From Basidiobolus meristosporus CBS 931.73 (taxonomy: Eukaryota > Basidiobolomycota > Basidiobolomycetes > Basidiobolales > Basidiobolaceae), in NCBI GenBank assembly GCA_002104905.1, contig MCFE01000359.1, positions 23,470 through 87,469 on the forward strand: a stretch of 64,000 nucleotides of DNA. Reading direction: 5' to 3'. A model generated the notes under the pieces. The model made no database searches. It was not told the origin of the DNA and saw only the letters and a list, made by a program, of their open reading frames with translations. Made by a program: the position numbers and the translations under genes. Position 1 is the stretch's first letter. Each line of letters starts with the position of its first letter. Shown here one piece after another: positions 47,695-64,000 of the stretch.

Positions 47695-48099
47695 GATTGT
47701 CCGCAATAAATATTGATTATTTCACTATTCACAGTTTTCCTGATTTTCCTATCCATCATTATCATGAGCTGGAAGAAGTAGGCCAGGGTTAGTGATCTTC
47801 TTGGAGTACTGAATCAAAGCACCGGAGTATATGTGGTTGTCGGGACATTGTGTGAGTTTGTTATAGGATGATGCAATACGAGCTTGCAGTTGATGCCATG
47901 AACTGTTGTGTTGCCAGTCCAATAAGTCAAATCTGATCTATCCACTTCGCAAAACTAGTAACTGATACAAGTCTAGACTCAAAAGCTGAGAATAGGACTA
48001 AGAGTTATGGGAGTATGGTTTTGGCGCCAATCCGATTGGAAGTAAATGCCTTAGGGTTGGTAGTGAGACCAGAGGGACCTGGGTCGCTGTAGCTGCTGA
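47695..48099. other. Intergenic
   Basis: 0.4 kb between the lipase and the uricase remnant. Nothing is recognised; the sequence just before 48100 may be decayed uricase 5' sequence but I cannot align it. Confidence 0.3.
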
Positions 48100-48547
48100 C
48101 AGTGTGAGCATCAAGTCTGGATTGGAAGGCCTTCTTGTGATGAAGACCACCGGCTCCCATTTCACCAATTTCCATCTTTGCGAGAACACCACCCTTCAGG
48201 ATGCTGATGACCGTATCTTCTTCTCCACGGCCAAAGCCCACTACAACATCGATACCTCAGTTAGTGTCGAGAATATTTCACATTCGACCGTATCTTTGAA
48301 GGAGCTCGCAAGACCATCCTGGATGTGCTCACTCAGACCACCATGTACCGCATGACCAAGTTGATCATGAAGTGCTTTCCTGAAGTCCAAGATGTTCTAT
48401 GCACTCCCCAACAGCCACCACTTCACCACCAACCTTGCACCCTCCAACCTTCCCAATGCTGGCCAGGAGACGACGATTTTCTTACCAGTGATTGACTTCT
48501 CCGGATACATTACTGCCACCATTGATCGTCGCGGCAACAAATTTTAA
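48100..48547 (+). pseudogene. Urate oxidase pseudogene, C-terminal part
   Basis: Recognisable C-terminal half of uricase, which converts urate to 5-hydroxyisourate. Frame 1 has SIKSGLEGLLVMKTTGSHF and DADDRIF. After a frameshift near 48285 a second frame reads TILDVLTQTTMYRMTKLI. After another near 48392 a third reads YALPNSHHFTTNL and ends GNKF before TAA. The N-terminal half is missing. Two frameshifts and a missing start make it a pseudogene. It lies immediately inside the first telomeric LINE copy. Confidence 0.8.
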
Positions 48548-48860
48548 TCTACAATCGCATGCAAAATTTCTGAATAAATTCAACACCAACTTCCATTGAT
48601 ACAACTGGGTACTTTTCGACCTTCCGGAACAATTGATCTTCAAAAGCTATGGCATGCTCATTTATTTACTCATATCTTTCCACAACGTTGTTAGCTATCT
48701 GGTGGTTAGTCTCATGGAGTTAAAAGCCTTTCCTCGCAGTAATCTATGATCCAGGCGAAAGGCATTCCTTCGTCGTCAGCGCCAGAAGGATGGTGTAGGG
48801 GGGGGGAGACAGTCACCAACAGGTGAAATCTTTATTTCAGTTGAAACAAAGAAGCCAGCG

Positions 48861-51627
48861 CTACTGTTGTAGCTTTGATACAAGAGTGTGTAGCTGAGGG
48901 GAATTTGTAGGTAAGTTAATAAGAAGTGATGATAGTTCTTTGGTGCTCAAGACACTGTTCAGTGGGAAGGGGGGTAGCAAGAGAGGTAAGAATGACTTGT
49001 GAACAACATTAATGAGGGGAATGTGATAAGGATTGATATTCATCATAAAGGGAGTGTGCTGCTGCAGATATTGCTGCCAAAGGTGTGTCAAGTACTTCAG
49101 GTAGGCCAGCTTGGGTTTTTCTGATTGCAGAATATAATGAGCAAACTTCTTGACTTCAGGATCTCCAAGTATAGTTCTCCAGCAGGAGCCAGGTGTAGTG
49201 TGGTGTGTTCTCTTCCATGCCTTGATCAGTGGGTTGTTGCAGTGGTGAAGTCTGAGATATAATCTGGTTCTAAGGTTGAGAAGTCTGATCTTATAGGGCA
49301 TAAACCCAAAAGCACCAAGAATAGCATGTCTGTAGGGGCATTCAGGCAGATGAGGCACCAAGGAGGTAATGCACCATACTGCAAACTTGTCAAGTTTAGT
49401 GCAGTCTCTAGAAGTAAGAGAAAGAAGTGGTAAGCCAAATTCCAGGACAGGAAAGACAAACTGCTTGAGTAGAAGGAGGCAGCTGGGAGCTGAAGTTGCA
49501 GGAGGAGTAACAGCCAGTAGCTTGTGGAGTGCCTGTCTTGCCAGGATAATTCTCTTCTTCAGGTGTGCTCCAGAGTCTAGTCCAGTAGGAAGGAAAGGAA
49601 AGCCAAGATATGTAGCAGAAACCTGAGCAGGCAGAGTGGAGTTCTCCAAGTTGATGGGACAGCCCAAAGGTACTGTCTTTGCAATGGAAAGCTGGAGATT
49701 ATTCTTCTGCAGATACTGGTGGATGGTTGGGAGTCTTGTTGCACATTGGAGGAAGATATTCTGATGTCATCAGCAAAGAGAGTAACCAGGTAGTCAGCTG
49801 AGAGTCTTGGGAAATCATTCAAGAAGATGGCAGACAGTATAGGACCAAGCACAGAGCCTTGAACCACTCCATTAGGAACTGAGAACACAGCTGATTGCTC
49901 ACTTGGGTGCAGAATTCTTGCTTGTGGATCCAGAAACAGAGACCTGACAAGGAGGGTGAGAGAGGTACTGGTGAAGCATTGCAACTTGGACCAAAGCAGA
50001 TTTCTGTCAACTGAATCAAAGGCCTTAGTAATATCAAACAGAACAGAGGGATACTTGCACTGGAGAGAGTGATCTTGGCTAAGTATGACTGCATATTCCA
50101 AGGAGAGGCCAGGAACAAATCCAAATTGTGCAGGGTGAAACTTGAGGGAGTCAGAGTAGAGCTCCTGAGCAAGCAGAAGCTCAAACACCTTTCTGCAGGT
50201 GGGCAGCAGAGATATTGGCCTGTATGAGCTAGGATCCAGGTGCTTTCCTTTACCCTTGTATAGTGGCAGAACATTGGCAAAGGACCATTCCTCAGGAGTA
50301 GAAAGCTGGGCTGAGCATTGCTGAAACAGTGGAAGCAGAAGTGCAGACATGGCCTTGGTATTAGTCTTCAGAAGCTCATAGGAGATTGTGTCCACACCTG
50401 GGGCAGTAGAGTTTGGAAGCATCTTGAGCACATTATGGATTCTCTCTTGATCAAGTGCAACTGGGATGGGCAGAGTCTTGAAGTCAGGATGAAAGCCAGG
50501 AGTTGAGTACTGCTTTGTAGAGAAGAAGATATTAGCCAGCTGTTCTGTTGAAGGTAACTTCCTGGAAGAGGGCCTCATTGCCCTGTAGAGTCTTGACACT
50601 GTTCTTGTTATAGAGTTGGAAGATTGCAGAGGCAAAGAACTCATAATATGGTCCCAGAGCTGAGTATGCAGAGTGTGGTGAATTGCCTTGGAGTGGTGTA
50701 TGGCTGTCAGGAGGAGTTTCTCTGTTTTTGGGTTAGGGAAACTCAGGTAGCTTTGTTGCAGGGCTGAAACAATAGATTCCCATTTTCTTGAGGTAACAGC
50801 AGTAGTCTTGCATGGCAGTGAGAGGGAGGCAGAGACCAGAATCAGATGCTTCACAAAGAGCCAGGCATAGTTGAGATCATCTGGCAGAGAAAGTTGCAAG
50901 CTGGCAAGCTTCAAGTAATCCCAAAGTCTTTCTTCTGATTCTTGGTAGCTTTGTGGGTGAGCACAGTAAGTTTTGGCAGCTTCTTCTTCACAACTGGTTG
51001 CATAGAAAGGGACCAGGCTGGGTGATCAGAGGCTCTAAAGGATCCTAGCTCAGCTCCAGAGAATTGCTTGACTTCATTCACAAAGTAGAGGGCAGCAGCA
51101 GAAGGGCAGATCCAGTCAACACATCTTTTCTCAGATTGAGCACCTAGTGCTAGCAGATGGCTTTCTCTCAGGAAGTTCAGTAGGAATGTAGACCTTGGCT
51201 TCATTCTTGCAGTCAGAGTAGTCTTGTTCTCAGGATGGGGAATGTTGAGATCTCCAAGCAAGATGACAGGTGCTGATATAGATTGCTGGTATTGCTGAAC
51301 TTTCTGGCAAACAACTTGCACTTCCTGAAGGGGGAGACTTGGAGGCAGATAGCAGAGCACCAGACTGATAGTTGGCAACTGGAGAGCAGCACAGTAAGGG
51401 GAGTAAAGAGGAACACAGAGCTGAGGAGTATTGATGGTAGAAGAGATGAAGCTGATAGAGGAGGTATTCTTTGTTATAGGAGTAGAAAAGCAATGAAGAT
51501 TAGTCAAAAGTGTAGAGGGTAGCTGGACATCAATCAAACACAGGAGGGAAAATCTTGAAAGAAGTCTCTCTAGAGTTGTTCTTGATGGCTGTATGCTGTT
51601 GCTGTTAAGTAACAGAACTTCAGGTAG
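48861..51627 (-). pseudogene. LINE A1 ORF2: APE endonuclease and reverse transcriptase (frameshifted)
   Basis: The endonuclease starts LLLNSNSIQPSRTTLERLL just after the ORF1 stop, in the same frame, and shows LLGDLNIPH, DWICPS and SDHPAW, the motifs of apurinic-type LINE endonucleases. The RT domain has SYRPISLLP, FDITKAFDSVD, NGVVQGSVLGPIL and the catalytic FADDIRIS. A long C-terminal region follows, with no cysteine motif that I can assign securely. Two single-base deletions (~50915 and ~49729) split it into three frames. Clade assignment (I/Jockey/Tad-like) is by motif wording only. Confidence 0.85.
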
Positions 51628-52077
51628 TCAGGCAGAGGTTGTAGCTTCTTCAGAGGCAGCATTGACAATGTGACCTGCAGAGTCCCAGAGCTCTTCAAAT
51701 GGTGCATCACTTAAGTCAGCAAGGAGGGAAATGGCATGATTCTTGAGGAAGTATGCCACATCATAGGAGGGGGCTTGTCTCTTGATGGCAGCAAAGAAAG
51801 ACAGAATGGCAACATGGGCTGGAGGCTTGTTGAACAGTAGAGAGTCAGAGGATTCAGATTCTTCAGGCACTATCTTGAAGTCAGTTTTCAGCCAGTTAAG
51901 GTTCTTCTCCACAAAGGCTACAAATGGATCAGCAATGTTTTGGTCTAGGATAACCTCCAGAATCTTCCCTTTTCTCCAGGCCAGGTTGACAATTCTTGAG
52001 AGCTGAATATTGCATGCCTTAAGTGCTTTCCTGATGTTAGAAATGGGAGTCCAGGGAACTTGCTTCAAGTACACCAC
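51628..52077 (-). pseudogene. LINE A1 ORF1, C-terminal part
   Basis: About 149 codons of ORF1, missing its N-terminus because the element is 5'-truncated. The VPWTPIS...NIQLSRIVN...KILEVILDQ.IA segment aligns by eye with residues ~130-190 of the intact ORF1 in element C (57912-58640). ORF1 ends at TGA 51628-51630 followed by CTA, and the endonuclease continues in the same frame. Confidence 0.75.
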
Positions 52078-52098
52078 AGTCCAGGTAGAAGCTGGGTT

Positions 52099-52130
52099 AG
52101 GGGGGAGACAGTCACCAACAGGTGAAATCT
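52099..52130 (-). mobile_element. Minimal LINE 3' end, copy A0
   Basis: Only the last ~30 nt of a family-A element, including the TCACC-TGTT-GGTGA hairpin, abutting TAGGGTG on its 5' side and GTTAGGGG on its 3' side. The shortest 5'-truncated copy in the window. Confidence 0.7.
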
Positions 52131-52245
52131 TAGGGTGTAGGTGTTATAGTAAGGGCTAGGAAAAGGTTAGAAGAGCAGGGGGTCTGGGGGACGCAGTCCC
52201 CTAGAGAATAAAAAAGCAGGGGGTTTGGGGGATGCAATCCCCCAT
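52131..52245. repeat. Degenerate telomere-like tract and two G-run hairpins
   Basis: Decayed TTAGGG-like words (TAGGGTGTAGG, AAGGGCTAGG, GGTTAG) followed by two related units, 52174-52201 and 52215-52243. Each has two runs of five G and a closing C-run, so each could form a hairpin or take part in a quadruplex. Confidence 0.5.
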
Positions 52246-53465
52246 ACTGCTCCCATACTCTTTAAATTCCCTTTGATTCACTTTTCTTTCATTCTTGGTT
52301 CTGTTCCCTTAGGGTTACAATTCCTCCTCCTAACCCTTATCACCCTAACCATAAATAATTTTACCCTACAATTGGCACATTGGCTGGTCATATAGTGGGC
52401 ATGTCTGAGCCAATATTTGTCTCCCTGCACATTCTGTATGCTCTGTTTAAGTCTTGATGATTATTTATTTAATAAATTGTTACTTTTAATGTATCTCTAA
52501 TAATTAATGGGAATCATCCCAATCTGGCCACAATCCCATATTTTGATAAGCTTCGGGCACCATAAATTGCGCGGCCCTAATATGATAAAAAAACTCATGG
52601 CCAATGCAAATTTTCTGTAACCCGATTGCTTTTACCAAATACAAAGTGTATCCCAAAGTTCAATATATATTATGGCTATAATAGAAACTTTATTTGACAC
52701 CATTGCAACTACTACTTGTGTTCCATGCACACATGTATCCTGCGAGAATTGTAAAAACTTAGCCACGCAGTACAAAAGTGCTTTTATTTTTCATCATGAT
52801 AGTTTTACATGAGTTCCTAACGCACTTTCATAGTGCACGGTAACCATACCCCAACAGGTTTTAAGGATACCCACTTGCTATGTTTGCTTGTGTCTAGCGG
52901 GAGTCATCAATCATCAGCCACGTGGTAATAAAATGCTTTTATTTTTCATCACAATAGTTTTACATGAGTTCTAACGCACTTTTATAGTGCACGGTAACCA
53001 TACCCCCAAAAAGTAGTGTGGATGCTTACTTTAAACGCTTGCTTGTGTATTGTAGGGACTATCAACAAACAGCCACATAGGAATAAAACATCCTAGAAAA
53101 GCATTGCTTTGTTGTTAGCAAGTATTGATGCGCAAATAGTGGTACTAAGTGAATTATTGAGTAACTATATACTCAAGTTGGTTCCAAGATATTCCTAGAC
53201 AATATGCTCAAAATCAATATTAGCATCAATAGCTTGCTCTTTGATCACTAAACCACCGCACCCAATATGCGGTGGCCTTGGTTTTGTCTAGCCGTTGAGG
53301 AATGAAACCAGAGTACAGTCACAAGAGAGGCAAAAGTGAAATGTGATGAAGTAAGTGTATATGAAAGTAATATAAATCTACAGGACAGAACAAAACAACT
53401 AGTAGTCAAACAGCACTCACAGACACTCCACGGAGTAGAGCACCAACACGGACAATAAACAAGCC
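52246..53465. repeat. Intergenic with 155-bp tandem repeat
   Basis: A unit starting AGCCAC recurs at 52761, 52916 and 53071, spacing 155 bp each, two full copies and a partial third. Units share GCTTTTATTTTTCATC and TAGTGCACGGTAACCATACC. A TATAAAT element near 53371 may serve the ORF at 53466. No other gene is seen. Confidence 0.65.
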
Positions 53466-53927
53466 ATGAGGGGAAAGGTTAAGGACCGCTACTTGGGGAT
53501 CAAGACCAAAAGAGGAAGCTGCCTCTACCAGAGCAGTCCTCGCACTCCAAAGGAAGACCAAGAGTCTACTATAGACAAAGATTGCGGCAAGAAAAGCAGT
53601 ACAATTACCAGTTCTGGTAGTGGTACCTTTGGAAGTCCTGAATACCTGGAGAAAAGTCGGAAAAAATTGGCAGATGACTCAGTTGTCCTGAGGAGAAAAC
53701 GAACCAATGCGATTGAGCAGTTCCAAAACAAACTTCAGCTTAGTTCTTCTTTGCCTCATTATAAAGTACTCCAAGTGGCTTATTTGGATTATAAGCGTAT
53801 GAAGGAGAGTCAGGCAGAGACTGATAAATTAAGTGATAGTCAATTGCATCACTTCTTAGATCTGGTAGAGAAACAGTTGCACAGCCAAGAGACGGAACAA
53901 CAATTGATGATTACAGAAACCAAATAA
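53466..53927 (+). CDS. Hypothetical basic protein
   Basis: 153 residues, unrecognised. The N-terminal third is Lys/Arg/Ser-rich, the rest is charged and helical, with a possible coiled coil in the last 60 residues (YKRMKESQAETDKLSD...). TATA-like element ~95 nt upstream; AATAAA downstream at ~53954. It may be the first gene of the subtelomeric segment that also carries the RG-rich ORF and the kelch-SNF2 gene. Confidence 0.45.
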   Translation: MRGKVKDRYLGIKTKRGSCLYQSSPRTPKEDQESTIDKDCGKKSSTITSSGSGTFGSPEYLEKSRKKLADDSVVLRRKRTNAIEQFQNKLQLSSSLPHYKVLQVAYLDYKRMKESQAETDKLSDSQLHHFLDLVEKQLHSQETEQQLMITETK

Positions 53928-54159
53928 TTTTGCCAATGTAGTTTTGCATTTTAATAAAATAAAAGGGTTTTAATAAGAACAGAATAAAGTTAACTTATGT
54001 GTACATCAAATGATTCAATTACTGGCTAGATGGATGTTACGTAGGAGCAAGAAGCTCAGTAACCTCAAAGTAAAGATATGATGAATGGGCCACCGACATC
54101 ATCCAAGAATGAGTATAAAAGTGGAGAAAGTGGACATAATCCTTCATAAAACAAGAAGC

Positions 54160-54945
54160 ATGGAAGCAGGCAGTAGCCGGGTAGATGCTAGGAGTGAAGG
54201 TAGAGAACAAAGAGAGCAAGGAAGGGGACAAGGATGTGGAAGAGGACGCGGAACCGGGCGCGGAAGAGGAAGAGGGCAAGGAGGTGGCCAGATCCAAGAG
54301 GAGCGTGAAGGAGGTGTTGCAGCAAACGTGAATGATGCTGAGCAAGTTGCTGTAGTCACTACCAGGCGGCCGGTCAACCAAGTTTCCCAAGCATTGTCAG
54401 AGGTTTGACAAGAGCTTCCGGAATATAGGACAACATCGCACCATGAGATATTGCGTTGTATGTGCCAGGAGATTAAACAGAGGAGGGGTAATGTTGTAAA
54501 GCTAAATTGGGATATTGCTGGACTTCAAGCCCAGATTGATTTCAGTTTCCACCATTCTACTGAGGCATTAGTGGCACAAATGGTGGAAAAGTTTGCCCGC
54601 ATCAGGGCAAGCAATGAGCAGGGTGCATCTTCAGACCCAGGTGTACTTGCAAGCAACATTATTGGAGGGGATACTACTTCCTCCCTTGAACCTACCACAA
54701 GCCAAGAGACAAGAGCAGAATCCTCCACAACAATGAGAATGGCCCCCACGCAGGTTGATATGGAAGTGTGCAAAGAAGACGTGGAGAAGCAGAGTGGGGA
54801 TACTATAGGCCAACCAGATACTGTAATGGAGGCGGAGAGACCAAGTCATATTGTCATCTTAAAAATACCACAGGTTGATTCATCGCTATCACTTCCCCCA
54901 TCATCACTATCTGTGCCCTCATCACCACCGCCATCCTCTGGCTAA
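54160..54945 (+). pseudogene. RG-rich hypothetical protein interrupted by TGA
   Basis: One continuous frame from the ATG at 54160 (alternative ATG at 54085) to TAA-type stops at 54945, broken once by TGA at 54406-54408. Before the stop: an Arg/Gly-rich tract (GRGRGTGRGRGRGQGGG) typical of RNA-binding tails. After it: a helical segment with QEIKQRRGNVVKLNWDIAGL and a Ser/Pro/Thr tail. No family recognised. It could be a gene with a nonsense mutation or two adjacent short frames; the shared frame favours the former. Confidence 0.45.
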
Positions 54946-55136
54946 CTTGAGTAAATAAAGAATATCCACCATCCCAAATCAATGAATTGACAAGTAATAA
55001 GTTAAACTGATAAGATTGACGATTTACAGACTAATATATGTAAAGTATGTAGTACTTAAGAGCTTTCAAGTTGTGGTGTATTATCAAGTATTCACCGTCA
55101 CATAAATCACACAGCAGTTGTTGTATCCCTATCCCA

Positions 55137-57254
55137 ATGGCATTAGAAGCCAGCAGTTACAAGGAGCATCGGAAAAATTTTGGCGTTTACCTGGCGACGG
55201 TGGCAGGTGTAACAAAACGCAGCTATTGCTTGATGACCATTACCCCGTCTATGAGATACTTGCTATTATATGGAGGGTATTCTGTTGAGCACTTTCAATA
55301 CAGCAAAATATCCTTGCCTTATGATGAGTGTAGAGCTGAAGAAACATCCGGCTGTGGAATACTCTATGAGCCCAGCTCAAAGGTTCAAATGATTTACCTT
55401 GCAGATCTACACGGTGATGAAGACATTGCAGTGACAGTTCTCCCGACTCCAGACAATATATCAACTACAGAGGCAGCCAAAGAGGTGATTTTAATTGGCA
55501 ACAGCTGTGCTAGTGACCACGAGAATCTCTACATATATGGTGGTTTTGAGCTGAGCCGTAGAGAATACTCAGGGCAACATGAAAGTGCCAAAACACGGGG
55601 GAAAAAAGCGATACGAAGCAAGAGTGGGGAGAGTATCAATAGAAGACTGAGCAAGCTGGAGGTAATCACGTACAAAGATGGCAATGGAAGCTCCAGAGTA
55701 TTGGAGACAAGGCCGTTCTTGAATAATCCGGCAAATATACCTTCAGCAAGAGGTTGGGCAGTTCTTACATACGCATTTGATTGCTTATTCTTGCTGGGCG
55801 GCTATCCTACACCATCGGAACCACCTTATACTCAACCAAATGGGTGTTTTTTAAACAAGTTCTACTGTTTAAAATTGCAAACTGGTGATTGGGAAAGACG
55901 ATATGTACACTCAGCAATACAGGAGCTTGGAGAAAACTTTATTGCTGTGGTAAACGAGTATGGCAACCAAATTCAATACATCAATAATGCAAATGTTACA
56001 TTCACCTATGATGTTGATAATCTGATCTGGATTTACCCTCCCGATCCAAGTCAGGAAGAAATGAGTACAAAGCAGCTACTAGGGTGCATTCTTAATGAAT
56101 TGGCAGCAATCTCTCAGCGGCACAAGAGGGAAGGCAAAGGAAGTGCTGAGACTGAAAATATCTTGCGGCATAGTGCCCATGGTCTTACTGTCCCACTTAA
56201 GAACCATCAAGCATTTGGCATACGATGGCTGATGTATACAGAGGCCATCCATAAAGGAGCATTGCTTGCCAATTCCATGGGACTTGGAAAGACATTGCAG
56301 ATATTAAGTCTCATATTGGAGACACCTGAGCAAAGGCCAAATCTTATTGTTGTCACGCTTGGAATACTTCTCAATTGGGTGATGGAGATAAAGACAAAAA
56401 CAAGGATATCCGATGAAGAGCTTCATGTATTTCATGGAGAATTCCAAGCTATCAAGAAGTCAGATATGGAGACTAAGAGGATTGTGCTCACCACCTACCA
56501 CACACTATGTGTTGAAGCAAAGAACCCTGATTTGCCTATATGGAATGTGAAATTTGGCCAAGTAGTGGCCAATGAGGCAGATACAATTAAGAACTACAAA
56601 GGCGGTAGCTTAAACGCAGTGAGTAAAATTGATGGAGAATCCTTGATACTTGTCACTGCCACCCCATTCCAAAATGAGATTATGGATCTTTATTCATATT
56701 TCACATTATTCAATCTATGGGAAGGCATTCCAAAGGATTTCCATCAACTCCTACTTGAGGAGGCCAATGCAAATAGGCTAGTTGAATGGGTTGTTGAAAG
56801 ACTTGGCCCATTAATATTGAGACGCGTTCCAAAGTCGCAAATATTTGGAGAACGCGCAGTATCCATGCCTAGTATTCAAGAGCAGATTGTCTTGTGCCAA
56901 TTCTTGCCGGAGGAGCTGCAGGAGTACAAACAACTGCAGGGAAGTCTTCCAGAGGAAGTTGGTCGGATGGGTGCAAATACCTATTTGCGTCTGTACTCAT
57001 GCCATCCATATATGTATACCTGGAGCAGGAAGAGGAATTGACTGAAAAAAGCGGCTGATGTTAGCATTGTCCAAGATGTTGAGATGAGTGAGGATGATTT
57101 TCTACCTGAGATTGATGAGGATCTTGAGGCGGTTGCGGTTGAGGTTGAGGAGCAGCTTCAAGAGATTAATAGCGAAGAGGTTGACAGCTCATCCAACGTT
57201 CCATCTACTTCTGCACCAACTGCCATACGCACCAAAGACACCCCTACAATTGCC
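55137..57254 (+). pseudogene. Kelch-SNF2 helicase-like gene truncated by the telomeric array
   Basis: Start at ATG 55137. The N-terminal ~310 residues show kelch-like blades (LLLYGGYSVEHF, NLYIYGGFELS, CLFLLGGYPTP), then linker, then a SNF2 ATPase lobe 1: KNHQAFGIRWL, LANSMGLGKTLQIL (Walker A intact), VVANEADTIKN where the DEAH box should be, and LVTATPFQNEI (motif III). A TGA at 57039-57041 ends the frame, yet the same frame reopens as acidic sequence (MSEDDFLPEIDEDLE) up to 57254, where the first SINE begins. Lobe 2 (motifs IV-VI) is absent. Kelch plus SNF2 is an unfamiliar pairing. Confidence 0.7.
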
Positions 57255-57782
57255 CTTAGGGGGAGGAAAGTCACCAAGTGGTGAAATCTTTATTTACTTA
57301 TGACAAGTATTTAAAGAAGCCAAGTTAATCTGAAGTTGTTCCTAGAAAGCTAGGTCTGAGAGATATCTTCCTGGTAAGCCAGGTCTGAGAGTTGAGAAGC
57401 TGAGTGTTACTGTATTTCCTAGTTAGCTAGGTCTGAGAGAGGTTTCCTGGAAAGCCAGGCCTGAGAGGTGAGAATCTGAGTACTTCTAAGGTGAGTTGTA
57501 CTGATTTGCGGTAGCTGAATTGTGGCCCAGATGGCCAGAAGACTGGGGGAACTGAGGTGAATTTCTGGGCAATCACTGGCCAAATTTACTAGGCAAATCT
57601 GACCAATTAGCATTTCAAGGATTTTAGCCAATCAGAGCCTTTACTTTGCCCAATGGTTGATCAAGCCATCTCCCAATGAGCACACATCAATTTATTGATC
57701 AAATTTTGTTGGATCCAGGATTTGAACCCACAACCATGGGTATGGAAGGGTTAGGGATAACCACAAGGCTAAGTGTTCTTGG
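57255..57782 (-). mobile_element. tRNA-derived telomeric SINE, copy B1 (full length)
   Basis: About 528 bp, no ORF, 3' end at the left. On the minus strand the 5' head has a tRNA-like A box (TAGCCTTGTGG, 57761-57771) and B box (GGTTCAAATCC, 57718-57728). The body has four hairpins (57341-57354, 57370-57383, 57418-57431, 57446-57459). The tail has TGGCTTCTTT, AAATAAA and the hairpin TCACC-ACTT-GGTGA (57271-57284), then C-run and telomeric TAA. Both ends abut TTAGGG-like bases. Confidence 0.85.
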
Positions 57783-58751
57783 TTAGGGGAGGGAAAGTCA
57801 CCAAGGTAGGTGAAATCTTTATTTGATTTCAGACAAGTCTAACTACAAATAAAGAAGCCAGCTGGGAATAGAAGATTCCCAAAGTAAACACTAAGTTGAA
57901 TATAAATAAATCTAAGCTAAAGTTAAAGCAGTATCCCAGAGGACACTGGAGTTCAGGTTCATGGGGGAGTGAAGTAGATAAGCTTGAGAGATGTAATAAT
58001 CTTTGAGGAAGTGGGTAACAGCAGGTGAAGGAGAGTTTTTGATAAGTGAAGTGAATCTTGAGAGCAGAGATTCCTCTAATGAGAAGGTCTTGTAAACTGG
58101 AGAATCAGGAAACTCTTTAAAGGCATGGTCAGTAGGTTCCCAGTAAAACTGGTCAGAGACATTTTGAGAGAATTGCTCAGCAATACTTTTGTCAAGTACT
58201 ACCTCCAGAGTGTGATGGTTGATAAATCTCATGTTAACAATCTTGGATAAATTGTAACCTTGTTGCTTGAGATACATCCTATGTTCAGATAGAGGAATAA
58301 ATTCCACATTGGCAAAATAGCAGACAGCCCAGTCAGTGGCAGGAGGCAAATTAGAGGTGGCAGGAAACTTTCTTTTAGTCTTGAGAGGAGCAGCAGGATG
58401 TCTTGAGGAAGCAGGAACAGGCTTTTTGACAGCTTCAGAGTAGGAAGAGTGAGCAGGAGCAGATGGTTCTTGGGGAGTCTTGTTGACAGGAAGAGTTGGC
58501 ACAGGGACAATAGATTCTTGCAGATCAGAGAACGCAGAAAACAGCTTTTGAACTTGTTTCTTGAGTAGAGCATTTTCAGCTTCAACAAGTGCAAGCCTTT
58601 CCTCAAGGAAAGAAATCTGAAGGGAATGGAGTGAAGGCATAAGAAATAAGAGGAAGAGAGTAGTATGGGGTGGGTGGGAGGGAAAATTAGCAGGGAGAAG
58701 AGAAGGAAGGAGAAAAATTCCAGAAGTCAGAATTTATAGATGGATGGACAA
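57783..58751 (-). mobile_element. ORF1-only telomeric retroelement, copy C1
   Basis: About 970 bp with one intact ORF and no RT. Its 3' tail matches the LINE and SINE tails in design: TGGCTTCTTT, AAATAAA, hairpin TCACC-TACCTT-GGTGA (57798-57813), C-run, telomeric TAA. The 5' end (AG-rich leader, 58641-58751) abuts GGGTAGGGTTAGGG. Probably non-autonomous, dependent on the A-type RT. Confidence 0.8.
57912..58640 (-). CDS. Element C ORF1 (Gag-like, coiled coil)
   Basis: 242 residues, uninterrupted. Residues ~8-40 form a leucine-heptad coiled coil (SFLEERLALVEAENALLKKQ). A Pro/Ser/Lys-rich linker (~45-105) follows, then a folded region (WAVCYFANVEFIPLSEH..., LEVVLDKSIAEQF) that also occurs in A1 ORF1. 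No zinc knuckle. LINE ORF1 proteins trimerise through coiled coils and bind RNA; this is the likely role. The intact frame in a degraded neighbourhood suggests recent arrival or selection. Confidence 0.8.
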   Translation of the reverse strand: MPSLHSLQISFLEERLALVEAENALLKKQVQKLFSAFSDLQESIVPVPTLPVNKTPQEPSAPAHSSYSEAVKKPVPASSRHPAAPLKTKRKFPATSNLPPATDWAVCYFANVEFIPLSEHRMYLKQQGYNLSKIVNMRFINHHTLEVVLDKSIAEQFSQNVSDQFYWEPTDHAFKEFPDSPVYKTFSLEESLLSRFTSLIKNSPSPAVTHFLKDYYISQAYLLHSPMNLNSSVLWDTALTLA

Positions 58752-60670
58752 GGGTAGGGTTAGGGGGGGAGACAGTCACCAACAGGTGAAATCTTTATTT
58801 CAGTTGAAACAAAGAAGCCAGCGCTACTGTTGTAGCTTTGATACAAGAGTGTGTAGCTGAGGGGAATTTGTAGGTAAGTTAATAAGAAGTGATGATAGTT
58901 CTTCAGTGCTCAAGACACTGTTCAGTGGGAAGGGGGGGTAGCAAGAGAGGTAAGAATGACTTGTGAACAACATTAATGAGGGGAATGTGATAAGGATTGA
59001 TATTCATCATAAAGGGAGTGTGCTGCTGCAGATATTGCTGCCAAAGGTCTGTCAAGTACTTCAGGTAGGCCAGCTTGGGTTTTTCTGACTGCAGCATATA
59101 GTGAGCAAACTTCTTGACTTCAGGATCTCCAAGTATAGTTCTCCAGCAGGAGTCAGGTGTAGTGTGGAGTATTCTCTTCCAGGCCTTAATCAGTGGGTTG
59201 TTGCAGTTGTGAAGTCTGAGGTATAATCTGGTTCTAAGGTAGAGAAGTCTGATCTTATAGGGCATAAACCCAAAAGCACCAAGAATAGCATGTCTGTAGG
59301 GGCATTCAGGCAAATGAGGCACCAAGGAGGTAATGCACCATACTGCAAACTTGTCAAGCTTAGTGCAGTCTCTAGAAGTAAGAGAGAGAAGTGGTAAGCC
59401 AAATTCCAGGACAGGGAAGACAAACTGCTTGAGTAGAAGGAGGCAGCTGGGAGCTGAAGTTGTAGGAGGAGTAACAGCCAGTAGCTTGTGGAGTGCCTGT
59501 CTTGCCAGGATAATTCTCTTCTTCAGGTGTGCTCCAGAGTCTAGTCCATTGGGAAGGAAAGGAAAGCCAAGATATGTAGCAGAAACCTGAGCAGGTAGAG
59601 TGGAGTTCTCCAAGTTGATGGGAGAGCCCAAAGGCACTGTCTTTGCAATGGAAAGCTGGAGATTATTCTTCTGCAGATACTGGTGGATGGTCTGGGAGTC
59701 TTGTTGCACATTGGAGGAGGATATTCTGATGTCATCAGCAAAGAGAGTAACCAGGCAGTCAGCTGAGAGTCTTGGGAAATCATTCAGGAAGATGGCAAAC
59801 AGTATAGGACCAAGCACAGAGCCTTGAAACCACTCCATTAGGAACTGAGAACACAGCTGATTGCTCACTTGGGTGCAGAATTCTTGCTTGTGGATCCAGA
59901 AACAGAGACCTGACAAGGAGGGTAAGAGAGGTACTGGAGAAGCATTGCAACTTGGACCAAAGCAGATTTCTGTCAACTGAATCAAAGGCCTTAGTAATAT
60001 CAAACAGAACAGAGGGATACTTGCACTGGAGAGAGTGATCTTGGCTAAGTATGACTGCATATTCCAAGGAGAGGCCAGGAACAAAGCCAAACTGTGCAGG
60101 ATGAAACTTGAGGGAGTCAGAGTAGAGCTCCTGAGCAAGCAGAAGCTCAAACACCTTTCTGCAGGTGGGCAGCAGAGATATTGGCCTGTAGGAGCTAGGA
60201 TCCAGGTGCTTTCCTTTACCCTTGTACAGTGGCAGAACATTTGCAAAGGACCATTCCTCAGGAGTAGAAAGCTGGGCTGAGCATTGCTGAAACAGTGGAA
60301 GCAGAAGTGCAGACATGGCCTTGGTACTAGTTTTCAGAAGCTCATAGGAGATTGTGTCCACACCTGGAGCAGTAGAGTTGGGAAGCCTCTTGAGCACATT
60401 ATGGATTCTCCTTTGATCAAGTGCAAGTGGGATGGGCAGAGTCTTGAAGTCAGGATGAAAGCCAGGAGTTGAGTACTGCTTTGTAGAGAAGAAGATGTTA
60501 GCCAGCTGTTCTGTTGAAGGTAACTTCCTGGAAGAGGGCCTCATTGCCCTGTAGAGTCTTGATACTGTTCTTGTTATAGAGTTGGAAGATTGAAGAGGCA
60601 AAGAACTCATAATATGATCCCAGAGCTGAGTATGCAGAGTGTGGTGAATTGCCTTGGAGTGGTGTATTGC
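58752..60670 (-). mobile_element. Telomeric LINE, copy A2 (5'-truncated)
   Basis: About 1.9 kb of RT region and 3' tail. The 3' end (left) follows GGGTTAGGGGGGG; the 5' end breaks off at 60670 and is followed by TTAGGGTTAGGGTTTAGGGG, about three telomere repeats, then SINE B2. Confidence 0.9.
58903..60610 (-). pseudogene. LINE A2 reverse transcriptase (frameshifted)
   Basis: RT and C-terminal domain nearly identical to A3. An extra A near 59826 shifts the frame after the NGVV motif. An extra G near 58936 shifts the last ~25 residues. Frames 60610-59780 and 60246-58903 hold the two parts. Catalytic FADDIRIS is present. The start codon and endonuclease are lost to 5' truncation. Confidence 0.85.
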
Positions 60671-60685
60671 TTAGGGTTAGGGTTT

Positions 60686-61054
60686 AGGGGGGAGGAAAGT
60701 CACCAAGTGGTGAAATCTTTATTTACTTATGACAAGTATCTAAAGAAGCCAAGTTAATCTGAAGTTATTCCTAGAAAGCTAGGTCTGAGAGATATCTTCC
60801 TGGTAAGCCAGGTCTGAGAGTTGAGAAGCTGAGTGGTACTATATTTCCTAGTTAGCTAGGTCTGAGAGAGGTTTCCTGGAAAGCCAGGCCTGAGAAGTGA
60901 GAATCTGAATATATCTGAGCTAAGTTATACTGGTTTGCGGTAGCTGAATTGTGGCCGGAATGGCCAGTAGACTGGGGGAACTGAGAGGAATTTCTGGGCG
61001 ATCACTAGCCAAATTTACTAGGCAAATCTGGCCAATTAGCATTTCAAGGATTTC
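60686..61054 (-). mobile_element. Telomeric SINE, copy B2 (5'-truncated)
   Basis: 3' end preceded by GGTTTAGGGG. Contains the tail hairpin and all four body hairpins but lacks the tRNA-like head. It breaks off at CAAGGATTTC and joins TTAGGGGG of copy B3 with no full telomere repeat between. Confidence 0.85.
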
Positions 61055-61153
61055 TTAGGGGGAGGAAAGTCACCAAGTGGTGAAACCTTTATTTACTTAT
61101 GACAAGTATCTAAAGAAGCCAAGTTAATCTGAAGTTATTCCTAGAAAGCTAGG
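61055..61153 (-). mobile_element. Telomeric SINE, copy B3 (only ~95 nt)
   Basis: Tail module and the first body hairpin only. The 5' break falls in the first CCTAG...CTAGG hairpin and runs into GGGTTAGGG repeats sharing the G's, a microhomology join. Confidence 0.85.
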
Positions 61154-61176
61154 GTTAGGGTTAGGGTTAGGGGGGA
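61152..61176 (+). repeat. Interstitial telomere repeats
   Basis: About three and a half GGGTTA units between SINE copies B3 and B4, same orientation as the terminal telomere. Confidence 0.9.
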
Positions 61177-61695
61177 TGAAAGTCACCAAGTGGTGAAATC
61201 TTTATTTACTTATGACAAGTATCTAAAGAAGCCAAGTTAATCTGAAGTTATTCCTAGAAAGCTAGGTCTGAGAGATATCTTCCTGGTAAGCCAGGTCTGA
61301 GAGTTGAGAAGCTGAGTGGTACTATATTTCCTAGTTAGCTAGGTCTGAGAGAGGTTTCCTGGAAAGCCAGGCCTGAGAAGTGAGAATCTGAATATATCTG
61401 AGCTAAGTTATACTGGTTTGCAGTAGCTGAATTGTGGCCAGAATGGCCAGTAGACTGGGGGAACTGAGATGAATTTCTGGGCGATCACTGGCCAAATTTA
61501 CTAGGCAAATCTGGCCAATTAGCATTTCAAGGATTTCAGCCAATCAGAGCCTTTACTTTGCCCGATGGTTGATCAAGCCATCTCCCAATGAGCACACATC
61601 AATTTTATTAATCAAATTTTGCTGGATCCAGGATTTGAACCCACCACCATGGGTATGGAAGGGTTAGGGATAACCACAAGGCTAAGTGTTCTTGG
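61171..61695 (-). mobile_element. Telomeric SINE, copy B4 (full length)
   Basis: Full 525-bp copy with tRNA-like head, four hairpins and tail. Differs from B1 by scattered substitutions (for example GATGAAAG in the tail). Its left edge shares G's with the interstitial repeats; its head joins GGTTAGGGGG of B5. Confidence 0.87.
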
Positions 61696-62222
61696 TTAGG
61701 GGGAGGAAAGTCACCAAGTGGTGAAATCTTTATTTACTTATGACAAGTATCTAAAGAAGCCAAGTTAATCTGAAGTAATTCCTAGAAAGCTAGGTCTGAG
61801 AGATATCTTCCTGGTAAGCCAGGTCTGAGAGTTGAGAAGCTGAGTGGTACTGTATTTCCTAGTAAGCTAGGTCTGAGAGAGGTTTCCTGGAAAGCCAGGC
61901 CTGAGAATTGAGAATCTGAGTATATCTGAGGTGAAGTGTACTGATTTGCAGTAGCTGATTTGTGGCCGGAATGGCCAGTAGACTGGGGGAACTGAGGGAA
62001 ATATCTGGGCGATCACTGGCCAAATTTACTAGGCAAATCTGACCAATTAGCATTTCAAGGATTTCAGCCAATCAGAGCCTTTACTTTGCCCGATGGTTGA
62101 TCAAGCCATCTCCCAATGAGCACACATCAATTTATTGATCAAATTTTGTTGGATCCAGGATTTGAACCCACAACCATGGGTATGGAAGGGTTAGGGATAA
62201 CCACAAGGCTAAGTGTTCTTGG
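61696..62222 (-). mobile_element. Telomeric SINE, copy B5 (full length)
   Basis: Full copy, closest to B1 in its head (same TTTATTGATC, TTTTGTTGG variants), with A/B-box-like sequences and all body hairpins. Head abuts the 3' end of LINE A3 through GGTTAGGGGGGG. Confidence 0.87.
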
Positions 62223-62238
62223 TTAGGGGGGGAGACAG

Positions 62239-62252
62239 TCACCAACAGGTGA
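62239..62252 (-). promoter_or_regulatory. Conserved 3'-terminal hairpin of the telomeric elements
   Basis: TCACC-TGTT-GGTGA in copy A3. The same 5-bp stem is at 48813-48826 (A1), 52113-52126 (A0), 57271-57284 (B1, loop ACTT), 57798-57813 (C1, loop TACCTT) and in A2 and B2-B5. It always sits right after AAATAAAGAT and before the C-run/telomere junction. Probable RT-recognition or RNA 3'-end structure. Confidence 0.7.
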
Positions 62253-62286
62253 AATCTTTATTTCAGTTGAAACAAAGAAGCCAGCG

Positions 62287-63950
62287 CTACTGTTGTAGCT
62301 TTGATACAAGAGTGTGTAGCTGAGGGGAATTTGTAGGTAAGTTAATAAGAAGTGATGATAGTTCTTCAGTGCTCAAGACACTGTTCAGTGGGAAGGGGGG
62401 TAGCAAGAGAGGTAAGAATGACTTGTGAACAACATTAATGAGGGGAATGTGATAAGGATTGATATTCATCATAAAGGGAGTGTGCTGCTGCAGATATTGC
62501 TGCCAAAGGTCTGTCAAGTACTTCAGGTAGGCCAGCTTGGGTTTTTCTGACTGCAGAATATAGTGAGCAAACTTCTTGACTTCAGGATCTCCAAGTATAG
62601 TTCTCCAGCAGGAGTCAGGTGTAGTGTGGAGTATTCTCTTCCAGGCCTTAATCAGTGGGTTGTTGCAGTTGTGAAGTCTGAGGTATAATCTGGTTCTAAG
62701 GTAGAGAAGTCTGATCTTATAGGGCATAAACCCAAAAGCACCAAGAATAGCATGTCTGTAGGGGCATTCAGGCAAATGAGGCACCAAGGAGGTAATGCAC
62801 CATACTGCAAACTTGTCAAGCTTAGTGCAGTCTCTAGAAGTAAGAGAGAGAAGTGGTAAGCCAAATTCCAGGACAGGGAAGACAAACTGCTTGAGTAGAA
62901 GGAGGCAGCTGGGAGCTGAAGTTGTAGGAGGAGTAACAGCCAGTAGCTTGTGGAGTGCCTGTCTTGCCAGGATAATTCTCTTCCTCAGATGTGCTCCAGA
63001 GTCTAGTCCAGTAGGAAGGAAAGGAAAGCCAAGATATGTAGCAGAAACCTGAGCAGGTAGAGTGGAGTTCTCCAAGTTGATGGGAGTGCCCAAAGGTACT
63101 GTCTTTGCAATGGAAAGCTGGAGATTATTCTTCTGCAGATACTGGTGGATGGTCTGGGAGTCTTGTTGCACATTGGAGGAGGATATTCTGATGTCATCAG
63201 CAAAGAGAGTAACCAGGCAGTCAGCTGAGAGTCTTGGGAAATCATTCAGGAAGATGGCAAACAGTATAGGACCAAGCACAGAGTCTTGAACCACTCCATT
63301 AGGAACTGAGAACACAGCTGATTGCTCACTTGGGTGCAGAATTCTTGCTTGTGGATCCAGAAACAGAGACCTGACAAGGAGGGTGAGAGAGGTACTGGAG
63401 AAGCATTGCAACTTGGACCAAAGCAGATTTCTGTCAACTGAATCAAAGGCCTTAGTAATATCAAACAGAACAGAGGGATACTTGCACTGGAGAGAGTGAT
63501 CTTGGCTAAGTATGACTGCATATTCCAAGGAGAGGCCAGGAACAAAGCCAAACTGTGCAGGATGAAACTTGAGGGAGTCAGAGTAGAGCTCCTGAGCAAG
63601 CAGAAGCTCAAACACCTTTCTGCAGGTGGGCAGCAGAGATATTGGCCTGTAGGAGCTAGGATCCAGGTGCTTTCCTTTACCCTTGTACAGTGGCAGAACA
63701 TTTGCAAAGGACCATTCCTCAGGAGTAGAAAGCTGGGCTGAGCATTGCTGAAACAGTGGAAGCAGAAGTGCAGACATGGCCTTGGTACTAGTCTTCAGAA
63801 GCTCATAAGAGATTGTGTCCACACCTGGAGCAGTAGAGTTGGGAAGCCTCTTGAGCACATTATGGATTCTCTTTTGATCAAGTGCAAGTGGGATGGGCAG
63901 AGTCTTGAAGTCAGGATGAAAGCCAGGAGTTGAGTACTGCTTTGTAGAGA
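62287..63950 (-). CDS. LINE A3 reverse transcriptase fragment (frame intact)
   Basis: Open from the truncation point to TAG at 62287-62289, about 554 codons, with no frameshift. Motifs: SYRPISLLP, FDITKAFDSVD, NGVVQDSVLGPIL (G-to-D in the B motif relative to A1 and A2), FADDIRIS, TYLGFPFLP. The first in-frame ATG is at 63858. It lacks the endonuclease and the N-terminal part of the RT. It is a useful reference for locating the indels in A1 and A2. Confidence 0.87.
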
Positions 63951-64000
63951 GGGTTAGGGTTAGGGTTAGGGTTAGGTTAGGGTTAGGGTTAGGGTTAGGG
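63951..64000 (+). repeat. Chromosome-terminal telomere repeats
   Basis: Eight or so GGGTTA units, G-rich strand running outward to the window end, with one short variant (GGTTAG) near 63974. Marks this as a true chromosome end in the assembly. Confidence 0.95.

What the first reader, a model, noticed from the sequence alone, without database searches (positions are those of the whole stretch)
57255..64000. Chromosome end built from stacked retroelements joined by telomere repeats
Seen: eight elements of three kinds (A LINE, B SINE, C ORF1-only), all minus-strand, all with 3' ends toward the centromere, each 3' end meeting TTAGGG-type bases. Five of the array and interstitial copies are 5'-truncated, and the truncated ends run straight into telomere repeats or the next element's 3' end. 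The last one is capped by the telomere. No poly(A) tails or target-site duplications are seen. Known: Drosophila HeT-A/TART/TAHRE attach by their RNA 3' end to chromosome ends, and Magnaporthe MoTeRs insert in telomere repeats. Inference: the element RNA ends in CCC(C)TAA-like sequence that pairs with the G-overhang and primes reverse transcription, while telomerase (TTAGGG) caps between rounds. TRAS/SART-like cutting inside telomere repeats is the main alternative.
Basis: partly seen in the sequence, partly recalled or inferred. Interest (0 to 1): 0.95.

Follow-up and report, generated by a model that had tools for sequence, protein, structure and literature searches.

The report
Fungal chromosome ends built by retroelements
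In this fungus, several kinds of copy-and-paste genetic elements pile up one after another at chromosome ends, facing the same way and mostly joined by about one telomere repeat, which suggests that they are copied straight onto worn ends alongside the normal telomere enzyme.

Summary
The window ends at its contig's end, very probably in Basidiobolus meristosporus. At least five retroelement families (LINEs A and D, SINE-like B, ORF1-only C and F) share an RNA 3' end: hairpin TCACC-loop-GGTGA, C-run, UAA. Exact-core searches give 1,489 matches. Of the 300 places printed, 197 are on contigs of about 50 kb or more; 196 of these lie within 30 kb of an end with the 3' end inward, and the exception is an internal relic. 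Of 136 parsed junctions, 109 have at most one TTAGGG unit, while 6 of 12 segments reaching a contig end carry 153-243 nt caps. Resolvable truncated ends show more microhomology than chance (1.89 against 0.74 nt). Best reading: element RNA is reverse-transcribed directly onto eroded 3' chromosome ends and telomerase caps them. Cutting at random sites in a long telomere tract does not predict these tracts. It works like rotifer Terminons, with a HeT-A/TART-like division of labour, but uses an APE-type LINE. The RNA end, the primer and the endonuclease's role are inferred, not shown.

The parts
48796..52095 (-). Interstitial LINE A copy (ORF1 end, APE-like endonuclease region, RT); its 3' end joins non-element DNA by TAGGG plus a G-run; used as reference A
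52096..52130 (-). 22-nt stub of the A 3' end with its tail, followed by TTAGGG and repeat E
52131..57254 (+). Subterminal repeat E (fixed inner end after TTAGGG, no RT seen), holds an SNF2 helicase-like ORF at 55071-57041
57255..57782 (-). SINE-like element B, to its usual 5' end, with tail
57783..58757 (-). ORF1-only element C (ORF 57912-58640)
58758..60671 (-). LINE A, 5'-truncated (1895 nt)
60672..61054 (-). Telomere bases (imperfect TTAGGG units) then B, truncated (357 nt)
61055..61153 (-). TTAGGG then B, truncated (86 nt)
61154..61695 (-). Three further TTAGGG-phase units then B to its usual 5' end
61696..62222 (-). B to its usual 5' end; used as reference B; A-box-like and B-box-like motifs near its RNA 5' end
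62223..63950 (-). Terminal LINE A, 5'-truncated (1713 nt); RT ORF 62287-63858
63951..64000 (+). TTAGGG cap, 50 nt, ends at the contig end

Best explanation
A set of telomere-specific non-LTR retroelements. The RT-bearing LINEs A and D supply the reverse transcriptase; C and F (ORF1 only) and B (SINE-like) are non-autonomous and share their 3' end. The common RNA 3' end (hairpin TCACC-loop-GGTGA, C-run, UAA, perhaps one more CCCUAA) is bound by the RT and pairs through a few nucleotides with the 3' end of an eroded or broken chromosome. That 3' end primes copying without an internal cut, so each new element has its 3' end inward and its 5' end as the new chromosome end. Telomerase then adds a cap of TTAGGG. 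Later erosion into the element leaves a 5'-truncated copy on which the next element is built. Shown: anatomy, orientation, terminal location, tract lengths, microhomology, shared 3' end, presence of a TERT domain. Inferred: the RNA end, the primer, use of the LINE RT by B, C and F, and little or no need for the endonuclease.
For: 196 of 197 placeable printed copies are terminal with the 3' end inward, and so are 56 of 56 for a pattern inside the A RT, which does not depend on the 3' end. 203 element blocks in 56 held segments, none reversed. 72 junctions join a truncated element to the next 3' end; in the 47 resolved to the base the overlap averages 1.89 nt against 0.74 in a random-truncation null, not reached in 20,000 resamples. 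Families with different bodies share hairpin, C-run and UAA. C's ORF1 is homologous to A's. TERT RNA-binding domain over its cut-off at C880.
Against: The APE-like endonuclease region is kept: GD(L/F)N, DW and SDH are invariant in the window copy and three relatives, which argues that it does something. The join has a constant phase (a bare or partial TTA then the G-run in 134 of 136), which a sequence-specific cut would also give. 27 of 136 junctions have two or more units and 11 have three or more. 25 of the 72 truncated junctions have unmatched bases and were left out of the microhomology test. The one unit could be telomerase's work. One internal relic. Junctions were sampled through the 3' core, so copies lacking it were not seen.
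Confidence: 0.6

Rival explanations
1. TRAS/SART- or MoTeR-like insertion: the element's endonuclease cuts inside a TTAGGG tract and the RNA is copied there by ordinary target-primed reverse transcription; the inner tracts later shorten by slippage or breakage.
For: APE-like endonuclease region retained. Constant join phase. MoTeR arrays show the same polarity and tracts from half a unit up, and long interstitial tracts there are unstable (passages of PMC7367193).
Against: If insertion were uniform along a tract of 8-36 units without later shortening, 4-17 of 136 junctions would have one unit or less; 109 do. Truncated elements are followed directly by the next 3' end. SART1 needs at least three repeats and a poly(A) tail (abstract and passages of PMC7265360); poly(A) is not seen here. 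The spot where APE enzymes carry QE (recalled) reads ID in three A copies and one relative.
Confidence: 0.17
2. Two steps: telomerase first heals an eroded end, usually adding about one unit, and the element RNA is then copied from that TTAGGG end.
For: Seeds of 1-4 nt are also how new telomeres start in Magnaporthe (passage of PMC7367193), and the microhomology here is of that size. TERT domain present.
Against: Healed ends in the held segments carry 153-243 nt (50 in the window) where capped, not one unit; 2 of 136 junctions have no TTA or A before the G-run.
Confidence: 0.15
3. Spread by recombination (break-induced replication or unequal exchange) between chromosome ends rather than by reverse transcription.
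For: Some truncation points recur (C at 804 and at 911, three times each), and the D copies on C191 and C324 are 99.9 % identical.
Against: Most truncation points differ, all but one of the sixteen possible family orders occur at least once among 89 adjacent pairs (B to D and the like), and breaks in non-element DNA are also joined to the fixed 3' end.
Confidence: 0.06
4. Assembly artefact.
For: 1311 contigs; telomere repeats are read forward 8002 times and reverse 103 times, which suggests an assembler that loses one end of each contig.
Against: The placed copies lie on 125 contigs of about 50 kb or more with different flanks and junctions; copies are diverged (family medians 94.8-97.8 % to the reference copy).
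Confidence: 0.02

Closest known systems
Terminons / Athena (endonuclease-deficient Penelope-like elements of bdelloid rotifers)
   Same: Arrays at chromosome ends, 5' truncation by short telomeric stretches, a 3'-terminal RNA fold followed by complementary telomeric bases thought to pair with the G-rich end (passages of PMC6431247)
   Different: Penelope-class RT and a hammerhead fold there; here an RVT_1 RT with an APE-like endonuclease region, a small hairpin, and SINE-like and ORF1-only partners
HeT-A / TART / TAHRE of Drosophila
   Same: Copies attached by the 3' end to chromosome ends, 3' end toward the centromere; an ORF1(gag)-only partner beside Pol-bearing elements with APE endonuclease (passages of PMC5537684)
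   Different: There poly(A) at the join and no telomerase; here C-run/UAA, TTAGGG caps, a TERT domain and a SINE-like partner
MoTeR1/2 (Magnaporthe) and FoTeR (Fusarium)
   Same: Fungal telomeric retroelements with the 5' end outward, arrays, truncated copies, short TTAGGG tracts, and in MoTeR2 a partner sharing the 3' sequence (passages of PMC7367193 and PMC12857005)
   Different: They have restriction-enzyme-like endonuclease; FoTeR 3' ends typically meet 3-7 repeats; here APE-like region and mostly one unit or less
SART1 / TRAS1 of silkworm
   Same: APE-class non-LTR elements in telomere repeats of a telomerase-type telomere (passages of PMC7265360 and PMC5537684)
   Different: They insert within repeats, SART1 needs three or more, with poly(A), and the two families have opposite orientations; here one orientation, mostly one unit or less, no poly(A) seen
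GilM / GilT of Giardia
   Same: Same-direction head-to-tail arrays between subtelomere and telomere repeats, some 5'-truncated (passage of PMC5537684)
   Different: No sequence comparison was made here; a SINE-like partner is not mentioned in the passage seen

Membership tests
Non-LTR retrotransposon (LINE), elements A and D | Reverse transcriptase of the RVT_1 kind, LINE-like | tested here: met
   A: RVT_1 over cut-off, best solved matches are LINE-1 ORF2. D: an open RT-like frame with YADD, read by eye and homologous in part to P0003; not scanned with Pfam
Non-LTR retrotransposon (LINE), elements A and D | APE endonuclease | tested here: inconclusive
   Window copy matches below the curated cut-offs; relative P0007 just over (27.5 against 27.4 bits); GD(L/F)N, DW, SDH invariant; solved-structure profile search gave nothing significant
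Named LINE clade (R1, Jockey, L1, CRE, Tad) | Position in an RT tree | not tested
   No named reference RTs at hand apart from LINE-1 structures
SINE, element B | Short, no ORF, 3' end shared with a LINE | tested here: met
   About 0.5 kb, no ORF of 100 aa or more assigned to it, shared 3' core
SINE, element B | Pol III head derived from a tRNA or other small RNA | tested here: inconclusive
   A-box-like and B-box-like motifs found by pattern; ARAGORN and Rfam gave nothing
HeT-A/TART/TAHRE | 3' end toward the centromere, terminal | tested here: met
   196 of 197
HeT-A/TART/TAHRE | Oligo(A) at the 3' join | tested here: not met
HeT-A/TART/TAHRE | No telomerase | tested here: not met
   TERT RNA-binding domain, TTAGGG caps
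TRAS/SART | Inserted within a telomere tract, repeats on both sides | tested here: not met
   At most one unit at 109 of 136 junctions
TRAS/SART | Telomere-specific endonuclease | not testable with these tools
   needs biochemistry
MoTeR/FoTeR | Restriction-enzyme-like endonuclease behind the RT | tested here: not met
   Pfam scans of P0002, P0004, P0005, P0007 show only RVT_1, APE-type matches and one weak unrelated hit; no dedicated search for this domain was made
Terminon/Athena | Penelope-class RT | tested here: inconclusive
   Best solved-structure matches are LINE-1 ORF2, but no tree was built
Terminon/Athena | Hammerhead fold at the 3' end | tested here: not met
   Rfam search of window 48000-64000 with E up to 1 found no family
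Terminon/Athena | Telomere-complementary bases at the RNA 3' end | tested here: inconclusive
   C-run and UAA at the DNA junctions; no RNA data

The most novel reading that the evidence does not exclude
A telomerase-bearing fungus has independently evolved a second RNA-templated end-repair system: at least five retroelement families, among them a telomere-specific SINE and HeT-A-like ORF1-only elements, share one hairpin/C-run/UAA RNA tail that acts like a telomerase template and is copied, without cutting, onto eroded ends.
Probability: 0.5. Interest if true: 0.9.

Novelty: new variant of a known kind. Interest (0 to 1): 0.8.

Why it matters
It would be an independent case of retroelements building chromosome ends, with an APE-type LINE, in an early-diverging fungal lineage that keeps telomerase, with a division of labour like HeT-A/TART and a SINE-like partner. 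Some 1,500 copies give a natural record of end erosion and repair, so that how a LINE RT can start without a cut, and how telomerase and retroelements share an end, become directly testable. No description of it turned up in the nine paper searches made; that library lacks most subscription journals.

Tried and rejected
Artefact: rejected because the structure recurs on 125 contigs of about 50 kb or more with different flanks and junctions. Dispersed LINE that happens to be subtelomeric: rejected by position and polarity, also with a pattern inside the RT. tRNA or Rfam identity of B: nothing found, so 'SINE' rests on length, shared tail and box-like motifs. Covariation test of the hairpin: not run, because the stem is the same in the families and an invariant pair says nothing. 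Endonuclease structure: two predictions were poor (mean pLDDT 48.2 and 53.0) and are not used; a profile search of solved structures gave no significant match; a fold search was not accepted. RT clade: not attempted for want of named references. Repeat E: considered as a further retroelement; no RT seen in the window copy, left open.

Full report
What was checked. The window is G000:C601:23470-87469 and its last base is the last base of the contig. The genome has 89.0 Mb in 1311 contigs.

The elements. A is a LINE of about 4.5 kb, judged from copies that extend beyond the 3.3-kb reference; its 5' end is not firmly fixed. It has an ORF1, an APE-like endonuclease region and an RT; in the window copy the Pfam endonuclease matches stay below the curated cut-offs and its frames are broken. 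D, not found in the window, is a second RT-bearing element, of which at least 2.9 kb is held. C carries only an ORF1, homologous to that of A (39 of 97 identical, E 3e-19), and in four held contigs (C110, C212, C244, C354) has several 101-bp tandem units at its 5' end, like promoter monomers. F, outside the window, is a second ORF1-only family by the part held. B is about 0.5 kb, without a long ORF, and carries A-box-like and B-box-like motifs near its RNA 5' end; ARAGORN and Rfam found nothing.

The shared 3' end. On the RNA strand A-D end in AAUAAAG-AUUUCACC-loop-GGUGAC, a type-specific pyrimidine stretch, a C-run and UAA; F ends in the same hairpin with another tail. The commonest G-run on the + strand is 6 for A, 6 (nearly as often 5) for B and 4 for C and D, in the 128 junctions of 137 that this first parser could read, so the tail differs by element. 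Each of the four 3' ends folded shows the small hairpin. One copy has an A 3' end on a B body (C130).

Genome-wide position. Exact-core searches gave 1025 forward and 74 reverse (A and B), 153 and 17 (D), 193 and 27 (C-like), 1,489 in all; reversed-pattern controls gave 0. Each search prints only its first 100 places, and these were placed on contigs with measured lengths or, for most, lengths interpolated from size rank (the rank order fitted every measured length). Of the 300 printed, 197 fall on contigs of about 50 kb or more: 196 are within 30 kb of an end with the 3' end inward (measured lengths only: 47 of 48). A first pass with cruder lengths gave 192 of 197. The exception, C558:98721, is inside a 218-kb contig; a C element there follows transposon-like DNA and an A piece in the usual head-to-tail order, so it looks like an internalised old end. 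A pattern within the A RT gave 346 and 21 matches; of the 100 printed, 56 were on such contigs and 56 were terminal and inward. The other 103 of the 300 are on shorter contigs and were not used.

Junctions. From 56 annotated segments, the window's last 20 kb among them, 137 junctions with the 3' core were taken and 136 parsed. Telomere units before the element: none 2, one 107, two 16, three 5, four 5, six 1. In contrast, of 12 segments that reach a contig end, 6 carry 153-243 nt of telomere-like repeats and 6 carry none; the window carries 50. 89 junctions have an A-D element directly before them, 72 of them truncated and 17 B copies at their usual 5' end. Of the 72, 47 resolve to the base; the overlap between the truncated element and the telomere phase averages 1.89 nt (9 of 47 zero) against 0.74 (52 % zero) for random truncation points, and no resample of 20,000 reached it, with or without one 9-nt case. 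The other 25 have unmatched bases or irregular tracts. The remaining 47 of 136 have no A-D block within 60 nt (further families, host DNA, or 5' parts not in my references) and were not classified. 12 of 15 B 5' ends run straight into TTAGGG. In 203 blocks in 56 segments none is reversed; the segments were chosen by the 3' core and turned to one orientation, so this tests consistency within segments only.

How it most likely works. The + strand is the strand complementary to the element RNA, so the chromosome's 3' end is the natural primer and each element grows outward; this follows from the geometry. A long pre-existing telomere is not needed, since most copies sit on one unit or less, many of them on truncated elements. 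I infer that the conserved hairpin presents C-run and UAA to a frayed 3' end, that a few nucleotides of pairing are enough, and that the RT of A or D copies its own RNA or that of B, C or F. The extra CCCUAA at some junctions could come from read-through into the donor's own flanking unit. Telomerase, of which a TERT RNA-binding domain is found in two pieces at C880 (one with a stop read inside, perhaps an intron), then caps. In the three A copies where the upstream part could be read, of five with the GDLN-SDH stretch, the endonuclease reads LLCLIDVQL, and one outside relative LCLIDVKI, where APE enzymes carry QE (recalled); with GD(L/F)N, DW and SDH kept I read this as possibly weakened cutting, no more. 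The retained motifs and the constant join phase are the best arguments for cutting.

Against known systems. The passages seen on Terminons (PMC6431247) describe nearly the same logic with another RT class. MoTeR and FoTeR (passages of PMC7367193 and PMC12857005) share polarity and short tracts but have another endonuclease. SART1 (abstract and passages of PMC7265360) needs three repeats and poly(A). Drosophila and Giardia elements are described in passages of PMC5537684. Of PMC10088271, PMC4700185 and PMC8381367 I also saw passages only. The passages seen mention neither a telomere-specific SINE nor Basidiobolus.

Verdict. Real, abundant and, as far as these searches show, undescribed. I rate it a new variant of a known kind, because end-attaching retroelements are known while this combination is not.

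Noticed in passing
window 52131-57254: Repeat E: fixed inner end TGTAGGTGTTATAG after TTAGGG, variable outer end, 155-bp tandem units and an SNF2 helicase-like ORF; 116 forward and 25 reverse matches in the genome, 80 of 83 placeable printed ones terminal with the same polarity. May be a further end-attaching element or a subtelomeric repeat.
   Followed up: partly
L010 (C23:15780), L085 (C183:14086), L026 (C224:256274): Family F: second ORF1-only element with the same hairpin and its own tail.
   Followed up: partly
L017:157 (C130:12415): B body carrying an A-type 3' end, perhaps from template switching.
   Followed up: no
G000: TTAGGG x3 is read forward 8002 times and reverse 103 times, and elements show the same skew: the assembler may lose the first read of each contig.
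   Followed up: no
C27, C47, C227 segments and L100: DNA with TGTTGT...ACAACA ends interrupts several elements, perhaps a DNA transposon.
   Followed up: no
L001 (C1:184730): Internal TTAGGG x3 in GC-rich DNA with no A-D element near.
   Followed up: partly
window 1-64000: GC is about 0.56 at the left edge and 0.40-0.48 in most of the right three quarters.
   Followed up: no
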